A DNA stretch of 64,000 nucleotides from Cytobacillus gottheilii (lineage in GTDB: Bacteria; Bacillota; Bacilli; Bacillales; Cytobacillaceae), in assembly GCF_900166665.1 (NCBI RefSeq), contig NZ_LT800494.1:646672-710671 (forward strand), read 5' to 3'. Below, one piece after another: positions 53,259 to 55,537 of this stretch (position 1 is its first letter; the number at the start of each line of letters is the position of its first letter). The position numbers and the translations under genes were made by a program. Under the pieces are notes generated by a model that made no database searches, was not told where the DNA came from, and saw nothing but the letters and a program-made list of their open reading frames with translations.

Positions 53259-53460
53259 AGAATCGCATCTATAAGGAAGCGAAATCGTTCGACAGATTTT
53301 GATTAACAAGTTTATATGCCAGATTTTTAGAGACATTCCACTTTTTATCTTACCCAGTCTGCATACTTTTTACACCTTTGAGGGAAAATAAAAAATTGAT
53401 CTTATCTTGCCTCCAGATGAGTTGAGCTGAAGATGCAGCAAAATGATCCTGCTAAAAGAA

Positions 53461-53496
53461 AAAAGGCCATTGCTTCAATAAGCAATGGCCTTTTTT
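53461..53496 (-). terminator. Terminator after tRNA-Arg
   Basis: GGCCATTGCT with its perfect complement, 6-base loop; U run on the minus strand, directly 3' of the tRNA. Confidence 0.85.
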
Positions 53497-53499
53497 CTA

Positions 53500-53571
53500 C
53501 ACCCTCGGAGGGAATCGAACCCCCATCTCAAGAACCGGAATCTTACGTGCTATCCGTTGCACCACGAGGGC
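53500..53571 (-). tRNA. tRNA-Arg (anticodon CCG)
   Basis: Read on the minus strand it folds into a full cloverleaf of 72 nt: acceptor GCCCTCG/CGAGGGT, D stem GTGC/GCAC, anticodon stem TAAGA/TCTTG with loop TTCCGGT (anticodon CCG), T stem GGGGG/CCCTC with loop TTCGATT. CCA is not encoded. It reads CGG codons. Confidence 0.95.
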
Positions 53572-53687
53572 AAGTTGTATCTTGCTGTAACGCTCCATTT
53601 CTTTAAACGTTACGAATACTAATTATAGGATAATATGTTCAACATTGCAACAACCATTTAGTTTGTAAGCGACAAGTCTCAGAAATC

Positions 53688-53727
53688 AAAAATGCCGGTC
53701 CATCATTATTCAATGATGGATCGGCAT
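53688..53727 (-). terminator. Terminator of the riboswitch-controlled gene
   Basis: ATGCCG.TCCATCATT hairpin with one mismatch; U run on the minus strand, overlapping the stop codon region. Confidence 0.8.
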
Positions 53728-53891
53728 GCTGGACAGGTGATAACTTCATTTCTTCTAAATTGAATTTTCTTGAAATCGTTCTTGGTGAAAGTCGTAAAGA
53801 CATTGTACTTGTGTCCGCATAAGCAGGTGTGCTGGTCCTTGACGACGTGTCTAACTTCTTTGTCCTTGCTGAGTACTGTTGGAAAAATCAT
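53706..53891 (-). CDS. Small zinc-ribbon-like protein under a c-di-GMP riboswitch
   Basis: Not recognised by name. The 61-residue product has two cysteine pairs, Cys23-x-Cys25 (HTCLCGHKY) and Cys52-xx-Cys55 (ITCPACRS), suggesting one metal-binding knuckle, and no signal peptide or membrane segment. AAGGGTGA lies 5 bases before the ATG and a terminator overlaps its end, so it is a discrete gene. The leader 53892-54024 carries a GEMM-I aptamer, so its level should follow c-di-GMP, linking it to motility, biofilm or surface behaviour. Function unknown. Confidence 0.75.
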   Translation of the reverse strand: MIFPTVLSKDKEVRHVVKDQHTCLCGHKYNVFTTFTKNDFKKIQFRRNEVITCPACRSIIE

Positions 53892-53944
53892 TGTTCACCC
53901 TTCTTAAAGCAGTATTAGGCAAATTAAAAAGGAATGATCGACTT

Positions 53945-54024
53945 ATATGCAACCCGGCTGCCATGACAATATACATGTTTTAGGCCCGTGGCTTTGCGTC
54001 TTTTACTTTCGTAAAATTTGCCCA
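53945..54024 (-). promoter_or_regulatory. c-di-GMP-I (GEMM) riboswitch aptamer
   Basis: Minus strand shows the GEMM-I hallmarks in order: GGGCAAA, a GAAA-tetraloop hairpin (TTTTAC-GAAA-GTAAAA), the conserved GACGCAAAGCC, CGGGCCTAAA, and the closing GGCAGCCGGGTTGC. The aptamer starts near the predicted +1 and ends about 55 nt before the start codon. Its GGCAAATT (plus 54015-54022) is complementary to AATTTGCC in the downstream leader (plus 53918-53925), a possible alternative fold. No intrinsic terminator lies between aptamer and gene, so translational or RNA-stability control is possible. Confidence 0.9.
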
Positions 54025-54029
54025 AATGT

Positions 54030-54038
54030 ATAATACCA
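54030..54038 (-). promoter_or_regulatory. Extended -10 promoter of the riboswitch transcript
   Basis: Minus strand TGGTATTAT; start would be near 54023, right at the aptamer. No clear -35. Confidence 0.55.
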
Positions 54039-54205
54039 TAAAAATAGAAATAAATCATATCAAAAATTTTATTTGTAAAATAGATCTTTCCTTTTCGAAA
54101 TGGGTTTCGTACCCCGAGGAGTTTCATCCTTATTCATTTACAGTATTTTCTCCATACAATAATTGCTCATCTTCCTGTAAAATAAAGATGAAGGGGGAAG
54201 GCAAC

Positions 54206-55537
54206 ATGGATTTAAAAGCAGGTTTATGGCAGCAGCAAACCATGAAGTTGGCGATGACTCAAGAGCTTAAGCAATCTATTGAGCTATTGCAGTTTAATTC
54301 CCAGGAGCTTACTGCCTTTCTTGAGGAAAAGGCTTTGGAAAATCCTTTGCTGGAGCTGCATTCAAATTTCGTTAAAACAATGGATCCCCGTGTACAGCGA
54401 TTTAAGAAAACAAAAAGCAATCATAATCAAGATAAAGAGAATTGGATTGAACAGCTTGCTGTCAGTGTACAGCAATTGGACGATTATCTGATTCAGCAGG
54501 TTCCGGCCAATCTGACAGAAGAAGAGAAAAGAATCATATTCTATTTTATTCATAACCTTGATGAAAACGGTTACTTATATAATGTGGATGTTACGCAAAT
54601 TGCTCAGCTTTTTGAAACTGAAAAAGAAACGGTACAAGAACAGCTCGACCTATTACATCAATTAGAACCTGCAGGAATTGGGGCGCGCAGTTTGCAGGAA
54701 TGTATCCTATTGCAGCTCGAACGGCTAATACCAGCAAACGAGCTGGCTGAGGAGATTATTCGCCATCATTTTCAATCATTTGCTGATAAAAAGTGGAAAC
54801 AGCTGGCCAAGCAGATAAAAGCAGATATAAAGGACATCCAAGTTGTCTATGACCTGGTGCAAACGTTAAAACCTCGGCCGGCAGCAAGGTTTGCATCAGA
54901 GAAGCCAGCTTATATCATACCTGATGTGATTGTTTATGCAGAGCAAAATGGTATTCACATTCAGCTTTATGATGAAAGTGTCCCCGCGATTGCTTATAAT
55001 GAAGTTTACGCTAATAAACTTCAAACAGCAGGTGATCAGCAGTTGGGGCGTTATTTGCAAAATCGGCAGCAGGACTATCAATGGATTAAACGGTCGATTG
55101 AACAGAGAAAAGAAACGATCTTAAAAGTCACAAAAAAGATCGCAGAGCGTCAGCCATACTTTTTTCAGAAGGGGCCAACTTTTTTAAAGCCGATGACGAT
55201 GAAGGAAATTGCTGAGGAACTTGATATTCACGAATCAACTGTGAGCAGGGCGGTTAGAGAAAAATATGTGCAAACACCTTTTGGAACTTTTGAATTGCGC
55301 ACCTTTTTTGCCAGTATGATTAAGACCGCAACGAATGCTGACGCTTCATCTGAGGAGGCGAAGGCAGCAATGAATAAACTTATTTCATCAGAGAATAAGG
55401 CAAAGCCCTATTCTGATCAGGATATTGCTAATTTGCTAAAAACAGAGGCTGGTTTAGTCATTTCAAGAAGAACGGCTGCTAAATATCGTGAGCAGCTGGG
55501 TATTCCATCCTCTTCCAAACGAAAAAGATATGATTGA
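54206..55537 (+). CDS. sigL: RNA polymerase sigma-54 factor SigL
   Basis: Sigma factor for -24/-12 promoters, used with enhancer-binding activators. 443 residues: N-terminal Gln-rich activator-interacting region (QELKQSIELLQFNSQELTAF), core-binding domain, helix-turn-helix (MTMKEIAEELDIHESTVSRAVR) and the RpoN box variant SRRTAAKYREQLGI near the end. ATG 54206 has AAGGGGGAAGG upstream; a longer frame from 54026 lacks a ribosome site and overlaps the divergent riboswitch promoter. Divergent from the riboswitch gene. Confidence 0.95.
   Translation: MDLKAGLWQQQTMKLAMTQELKQSIELLQFNSQELTAFLEEKALENPLLELHSNFVKTMDPRVQRFKKTKSNHNQDKENWIEQLAVSVQQLDDYLIQQVPANLTEEEKRIIFYFIHNLDENGYLYNVDVTQIAQLFETEKETVQEQLDLLHQLEPAGIGARSLQECILLQLERLIPANELAEEIIRHHFQSFADKKWKQLAKQIKADIKDIQVVYDLVQTLKPRPAARFASEKPAYIIPDVIVYAEQNGIHIQLYDESVPAIAYNEVYANKLQTAGDQQLGRYLQNRQQDYQWIKRSIEQRKETILKVTKKIAERQPYFFQKGPTFLKPMTMKEIAEELDIHESTVSRAVREKYVQTPFGTFELRTFFASMIKTATNADASSEEAKAAMNKLISSENKAKPYSDQDIANLLKTEAGLVISRRTAAKYREQLGIPSSSKRKRYD

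What the first reader, a model, noticed from the sequence alone, without database searches (positions are those of the whole stretch)
53706..54038. c-di-GMP-I riboswitch controlling an unnamed 61-residue Cys-pair protein
The minus-strand leader carries all GEMM-I hallmarks (GAAA-tetraloop hairpin, GACGCAAAGCC, CCTAAA, GGCAGCCGGGTTGC) and starts at the predicted promoter. Its only target is a small protein with CxC and CxxC pairs and no known role. The aptamer's GGCAAATT can pair perfectly with AATTTGCC about 90 nt downstream, which suggests a switch without a terminator. A c-di-GMP effector or adaptor not yet described is possible. It is divergent from sigL.
Basis: partly seen in the sequence, partly recalled or inferred. 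Interest (0 to 1): 0.8.

Follow-up and report, generated by a model that had tools for sequence, protein, structure and literature searches.

The report
c-di-GMP switch: zinc microprotein and CheY
Upstream of a conserved 61-residue protein, likely zinc-binding, this bacterium carries an RNA element that matches the family sensing the signal c-di-GMP and is predicted to block the protein's translation when the signal is high; in related bacteria the same form of the element stands almost only before this small protein or a regulator resembling the chemotaxis protein CheY, so the unknown protein probably works in the switch between swimming and settling.

Summary
The minus-strand leader is a full-length c-di-GMP-I aptamer (80.5 bits, gathering 35) before a conserved 61-codon gene under purifying selection. 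Of 46 named genome loci encoding relatives, 37 have the aptamer just upstream. I predict a translational OFF switch without terminator. Correction: the invariant putative metal ligands are H15, C25, C53, C56, not CxC plus CxxC. Main new result: the exact aptamer core occurs at 77 places in the family and order scans; 40 precede this protein family, 33 a stand-alone CheY-like response regulator, 4 neither. Of 25 CheY-like leaders checked, 22 carry the arm; the one in the window's genome does not. So this looks like a dedicated two-target c-di-GMP element, and the microprotein probably acts in motility or chemotaxis (inferred). Some copies sit among phage genes. Ligand binding, zinc and the protein's role are untested; no known protein family fits.

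The parts
54030..54038 (-). extended -10 promoter element TGGTATTAT (predicted)
   Evidence: sequence; such a motif lies 7-11 nt before GGCAAA in 39 of 40 leaders
53945..54032 (-). c-di-GMP-I aptamer
   Evidence: RF01051, 80.5 bits
54015..54025 (-). 5' switching strand TTGGGCAAATT, part of the aptamer
   Evidence: 11 bp with 53915-53925
53915..53925 (-). 3' switching arm AATTTGCCTAA
   Evidence: TTTGCC-type arm in 39 of 40 aptamer-bearing leaders
53924..53932 (-). anti-Shine-Dalgarno strand CCTTTTTAA (predicted pairing)
   Evidence: fold of the post-aptamer region
53895..53904 (-). Shine-Dalgarno region AGAAGGGTGA, 3 nt before ATG
   Evidence: duplex with 16S 3' end -8.5 kcal/mol
53706..53891 (-). 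61-aa microprotein gene; invariant H15, C25, C53, C56 (putative zinc ligands)
53692..53727 (-). hairpin followed by a T run, overlapping the gene's end (probable terminator)
   Evidence: 56-nt stretch folds at -22.5 kcal/mol, z -4.6, 0 of 200 shuffles as good; not listed by the pattern scan

Best explanation
The leader matches the c-di-GMP-I aptamer and is joined to a conserved platform that is predicted to hide the Shine-Dalgarno when c-di-GMP is bound, so that a likely zinc-binding microprotein would be made only when c-di-GMP is low, as would a CheY-like regulator that in most related genomes checked carries the same aptamer and platform. Mechanism: transcription is predicted to start at about the strand GGGCAAAUU. 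With ligand, that strand is held in the aptamer and CCUUUUUAA pairs with UUAAGAAGG over the Shine-Dalgarno: OFF. Without ligand, GGGCAAAUU pairs with AAUUUGCC; the sequestering hairpin cannot form in the same nested structure and the ribosome site opens: ON. The protein probably binds zinc through H15/C25/C53/C56 and serves the low-c-di-GMP, motile state, most likely as an adaptor in chemotaxis or motor control. Shown: the aptamer match, its linkage to this protein family, the conserved alternative pairings, the sharing of one aptamer core by the two gene families. Predicted: OFF direction, start site, zinc. Inferred: the motility role, at about one in three; the confidence below is for the switch and the two-target linkage.
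For: Aptamer 80.5 bits. Of all 43 matches, 25 have an aptamer over the gathering score directly upstream: 20 of 20, five of 20, none of three. Of 46 named genome loci, 37 by pattern. 3' arm in 39 of 40 leaders against 1 of 25 other GEMM-I leaders that one search printed (34 loci given, 8 not parsed, the window's own left out; mostly the best-scoring loci, not a random sample). Nested-fold test: Shine-Dalgarno more open in the captured than in the aptamer state in 35 of 39 leaders, means 0.42 and 0.23; captured state more stable without ligand in 33 of 39 (related leaders, not independent). CheY-like set 20 of 22, or 15 of 17 without five whose start codon I doubt. Own arm/Shine-Dalgarno pairs more stable than swapped ones in 11 of 12 hand-made groups. 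Exact aptamer core: family scan 61 places = 32 this protein, 25 CheY-like, 4 neither; order scan 20 places = 10 and 10; four places shared, 77 in all. The two genes are neighbours on one contig (L126) and 10-12 kb apart in two genomes. Own genome: 20 GGDEF matches, 19 over the cut-off. All 32 genomes with the exact-aptamer protein have FliG, 169 of 193 overall. dN/dS 0.05-0.34 in 10 of 14 pairs, the other four saturated.
Against: No binding or expression data. For the window itself the Shine-Dalgarno stays mostly paired even in the captured state (0.05 to 0.28). A first test that only blocked the arm raised opening in 18 of 38 leaders; the result needs the nested exclusion of the anti-SD strand. 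Shuffling the anti-SD strand was beaten at 5% in only 7 of 35. One group of four leaders (L088, L099, L105, L108) fails the swap test. L123, the window genome's own CheY-like leader L074, its relative L197, and L186 lack the arm, so those would switch otherwise. Nine of 46 named loci lack the aptamer. Four exact aptamers precede neither gene. Co-occurrence of the two genes is weak: 13 of 25 genomes against 61 of 193, p 0.036 without correction for kinship. One genome with the riboswitch-CheY gene (G117) has no FliG match. Six of 25 CheY-like proteins have Glu at the acceptor Asp. Zinc binding rests on residue conservation alone.
Confidence: 0.6

Rival explanations
1. Same riboswitch and OFF logic, but the microprotein is a nucleic-acid-binding zinc ribbon (a translation or transcription regulator), and shares the aptamer with CheY-like genes only because both belong to the low-c-di-GMP state.
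For: Net charge +5 in the window, mean +6.4 over 36 aptamer-linked members; weak matches to phage families of unknown function (phrog_15583, E 2.6e-5, 12 of 44 members); relatives without aptamer exist.
Against: No DNA- or RNA-binding family over its cut-off for the window protein; no fold match with E under 0.001.
Confidence: 0.35
2. The switch is ON rather than OFF: ligand binding frees the arm, which then helps expose the ribosome site or stabilises the message.
For: The window's Shine-Dalgarno is largely paired in both modelled states; blocking the arm alone changes opening in no consistent direction (18 of 38 up).
Against: Nested folds favour opening in the captured, ligand-free state in 35 of 39 and 20 of 22 leaders; the arm lies next to or overlaps the sequestering strand in the leaders printed.
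Confidence: 0.15
3. The gene is mainly phage or mobile-element cargo that has settled at several chromosomal sites, and the CheY-like link is a by-product of the riboswitch being copied between cargo genes.
For: Six loci share a neighbourhood of phage-type genes, whose DnaD-like loader, RecT, RecE-like exonuclease and repressor were identified in L125; three loci come from viral contigs; neighbours differ between clades.
Against: In the window the neighbours are clpP, tRNA-Arg, sigma-54, a glutaredoxin-like gene and cggR; no match in phage or plasmid records; the gene stays next to sigma-54 in four named loci.
Confidence: 0.2

Closest known systems
Vc2, the Vibrio cholerae c-di-GMP-I translational OFF riboswitch (named so in PMC9262584, passages seen; Inuzuka 2018 seen only as a reference there)
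   Same: GEMM-I aptamer; translational repression by ligand; stem P1 at the aptamer's ends decides the switch
   Different: Other platform, Gram-positive hosts, a new target protein family; here OFF is predicted, not measured
C. difficile c-di-GMP-I riboswitches before prophage genes and before small hypothetical proteins (PMC3649979 and PMC11477304, passages seen)
   Same: GEMM-I upstream of phage-borne or small unknown genes
   Different: Whether those proteins resemble this one was not tested; the family scan of the phylum sample found only the window's own genome
cmrRST of C. difficile, a signal-transduction operon behind a c-di-GMP-II riboswitch (PMC11477304 table passage; PMC12393383 listing)
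   Same: A c-di-GMP riboswitch before a response-regulator system
   Different: Class II riboswitch, full two-component operon; here class I and a stand-alone CheY-like domain
Bc1 and Bc2, c-di-GMP-I riboswitches of Bacillus thuringiensis (PMC11218506, PMC4933901; start of abstracts in the search listing)
   Same: GEMM-I in Bacillaceae
   Different: Bc1 has a long platform with two terminators; Bc2 controls a collagen adhesion protein; here no terminator is seen and the target differs
CheY
   Same: Second target class: one Response_reg domain, nearest solved chains are CheY
   Different: A paralogue outside any flagellar operon seen here, with its own c-di-GMP riboswitch; some copies lack the acceptor Asp

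Membership tests
c-di-GMP-I riboswitch (RF01051) | covariance-model score over gathering, full length | tested here: met
   80.5 against 35 bits, positions 1-87
c-di-GMP-I riboswitch (RF01051) | G at the position equivalent to Vc2 G20 (c-di-GMP rather than c-GAMP) | tested here: inconclusive
   GGCAAA is kept in the leaders, but the mapping of G20 to this motif is recalled; PMC9262584 calls it a selectivity factor, not a hard filter
c-di-GMP-I riboswitch (RF01051) | binds c-di-GMP | not testable with these tools
   needs in-line probing or ITC
translational OFF riboswitch | alternative helix excluding the aptamer, and a hairpin over the Shine-Dalgarno | tested here: met
   predicted pairings; see evidence against for the exceptions
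translational OFF riboswitch | ligand lowers translation | not testable with these tools
   needs a reporter assay
transcriptional (terminator) riboswitch | intrinsic terminator between aptamer and start codon | tested here: not met
   none listed on the minus strand in 53450-54300, and none in the folds of the post-aptamer region
YnfU-family zinc-binding protein (NF038384) | curated score | tested here: not met
   11.6 against 36 bits
DUF678 (PF05077) | Pfam gathering score | tested here: not met
   19.6 against 24.1 bits
CSL zinc finger (PF05207) | Pfam gathering score | tested here: not met
   15.7 against 29.2 bits
zinc ribbon in general | four conserved metal ligands and the ribbon fold | tested here: inconclusive
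prophage cargo gene | phage genes as neighbours (window copy) | tested here: not met
   clpP, tRNA-Arg, sigma-54, glutaredoxin-like, cggR; phage-type neighbours in other clades

The most novel reading that the evidence does not exclude
A dedicated c-di-GMP riboswitch subtype wires two proteins, a stand-alone CheY and an unknown zinc-ribbon microprotein, as one translational module; the microprotein is a new class of motility or chemotaxis adaptor that works with that CheY, and prophages carry the module to alter host swimming.
Probability: 0.3. Interest if true: 0.82.

Novelty: new variant of a known kind. Interest (0 to 1): 0.62.

Why it matters
How c-di-GMP reaches the flagellar and chemotaxis machinery in Gram-positive bacteria has been worked out in few genera (recalled). 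A conserved riboswitch subtype that stands before a CheY-like regulator and one unknown microprotein gives a short, testable list of parts, and gives an orphan protein family a signal, a predicted sign of regulation and a probable pathway.

Full report
The aptamer. cmscan of the window puts RF01051 at 53945-54032 on the minus strand, full length, 80.5 bits against a gathering score of 35. The reading frame 53706-53891 (-) follows after 53 nt. A strong hairpin with a T run overlaps its end (56-nt stretch, -22.5 kcal/mol, z -4.6, 0 of 200 shuffles as good), though the simple pattern scan did not list it. The unit looks like a single-gene transcript of about 340 nt that ends before tRNA-Arg (53499-53572). 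The divergent gene is sigma-54.

The protein is real and conserved. A search of 101 whole genomes gave 43 matches in 32 genomes. A search of named genomes gave 46 loci, with record titles from Cytobacillus, Niallia, Peribacillus, Mesobacillus, Metabacillus and Bacillus (two titled Paenibacillus and Pseudomonas); the nearest to the window is Cytobacillus gottheilii, 95% identical. dN/dS is 0.05-0.34 in the 10 of 14 pairs where it can be computed; in the other four, synonymous sites are saturated. Among the 31 members of A1, P4, T5, H15, C25, I43, F45, C53 and C56 are invariant, but C23 is kept in only 23. In the 44-member A4, C23 is invariant, yet three aptamer-linked members of A1 (L018, L020, L025) lack it. 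The most economical metal site is therefore His + 3 Cys. AlphaFold2 gives a small strand-and-helix model (pLDDT 83, pTM 0.61) without a usable match.

The riboswitch goes with the protein. With the covariance model, 25 of all 43 matches have an aptamer directly upstream: L001-L020, L021, L022, L024, L025 and L061. L062 has one after, not before, the gene; L073 has one on the other strand. Among the 46 named loci, 37 have the aptamer by pattern and nine do not. Two loci look decayed: L089 keeps GGCAAA and the arm, and L126 keeps the arm, without a recognisable aptamer.

How it switches. The 5' strand GGGCAAAUU of the aptamer can pair with AAUUUGCC in the platform: 11 bp in the window, 9-15 bp in most leaders, 8 in L080. 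The arm is present in 39 of 40 aptamer-bearing leaders (37 named loci, the window, two viral contigs); L123 lacks it and L108 can form only 6 bp. In the window, folding the post-aptamer region alone pairs CCUUUUUAA with UUAAGAAGG over the Shine-Dalgarno. If the long-range helix forms, that hairpin would be a pseudoknot and is excluded in a nested fold. In that model the site is more open in the captured than in the aptamer state in 35 of 39 leaders (means 0.42 and 0.23), and the captured state is the more stable one without ligand in 33 of 39. The leaders are related, so these are not independent tests, and in the window the opening is modest (0.05 to 0.28). A simpler test that only blocked the arm gave an increase in 18 of 38, so the result depends on the nested exclusion. 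Own arm/Shine-Dalgarno pairs are more stable than swapped pairs in 11 of 12 groups that I made by hand; the group L088, L099, L105, L108 fails. Shuffling the anti-SD strand was little test, below 0.05 in 7 of 35. The -10 motif lies 7-11 nt from GGCAAA in 39 of 40 leaders, so the transcript probably begins at about the switching strand. Other GEMM-I leaders differ: of 25 printed (34 loci given, 8 not parsed, the window's own left out), one has a TTTGCC arm; several show T runs typical of terminators (for example L031, L032, L036, L060), which I saw by eye and did not count. Most of those loci were the best-scoring ones, not a random sample.

Two targets. The exact aptamer core GGCAAATTTTAYGAAARTAAAAGACGCAAAGCC occurs 61 times in 49 of 193 genomes of the GTDB family, with no hit of the reversed control. 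By coordinates and translations, 32 precede this protein, 25 a stand-alone CheY-like response regulator and 4 neither (L155, L189, L193, L194). The order scan gave 20 places in 19 of 397 genomes: 10 before the protein, 10 before CheY-like genes. Four places are in both scans, so there are 77 in all: 40, 33 and 4. Of the 25 CheY-like leaders of the family scan, 22 have a TTTGCC or ATTGCC arm, and the captured state opens the Shine-Dalgarno in 20 of 22, or 15 of 17 if five with a doubtful start codon are left out. The window's genome carries both genes; its CheY-like leader (L074) has the aptamer but not the arm. That protein has one Response_reg domain and its nearest solved relatives are CheY proteins. 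Six of 25 CheY-like proteins have Glu in place of the acceptor Asp.

Function. The shared aptamer is the best clue: the protein is regulated as a CheY-like protein is. All 32 genomes with the exact-aptamer protein have FliG, against 169 of 193 overall, while distant relatives in genus g24 also occur in genomes without FliG. Against this: co-occurrence is weak (13 of 25 against 61 of 193; p 0.036, kinship ignored), and one genome with the riboswitch-CheY gene (G117) has no FliG match. I commit to a motility or chemotaxis adaptor, at about one in three; a nucleic-acid-binding role is about as likely in view of the positive charge.

Mobility. Neighbours differ between clades: sigma-54 and cggR/gap-type genes in L078, L080, L082, L083; lexA/yneA/tkt-like genes in another group; a SulP-like and an MFS-like transporter in Peribacillus (names recalled from sequence); and phage-type genes in L084-L087, L124 and L125, identified by PHROGs in L125 only. 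Three loci come from a viral-contig collection.

Literature. Vc2 is described as a translational OFF switch (PMC9262584, passages). Gram-positive riboswitches are said to prefer transcriptional platforms, and c-di-GMP-I riboswitches precede small hypothetical and prophage genes in C. difficile, where a c-di-GMP-II riboswitch precedes a response-regulator operon (PMC11477304 and PMC3649979, passages). Five searches of the open library listed no paper whose title or shown abstract describes this protein family or a c-di-GMP-I riboswitch before a CheY gene; full texts were not read, so this is a limited statement. GGDEF domains are plentiful in the window's genome (20 matches, 19 over the cut-off), so the ligand is probably made.

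Noticed in passing
L074 1501-1987 (window genome C4:3441506): The best-scoring GEMM-I of the genome precedes a stand-alone CheY-like regulator without the AATTTGCC arm; a 120-residue ORF starts at that gene's stop.
   Followed up: partly
L158-L163: CheY-like proteins under the same aptamer with ADR for ADD and Glu at the acceptor Asp, perhaps phosphorylation-independent.
   Followed up: no
L155, L189, L193, L194: Copies of the exact aptamer with neither gene behind them; in L189, L193 and L194 the longer ORFs nearby lie on the opposite strand.
   Followed up: partly
L089 and L126, upstream of the gene: Aptamer decayed or lost while the platform arm is kept.
   Followed up: partly
L077 (window genome C4:427176), L038, L051: GEMM-I elements before another recurring small protein of 75-81 residues (VLFG-V-F/Y-F-E type); in L077 it is divergent from a chemoreceptor-like protein.
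   Followed up: no
L034, L041, L042, L044, L045, L049, L050: GEMM-I elements before a recurring protein of 122-125 residues beginning MIVVDKKKY, not identified.
   Followed up: no
L103 5596 and L112 5579: A second, divergent family member without aptamer lies just upstream of the aptamer-linked copy in two Peribacillus records.
   Followed up: no
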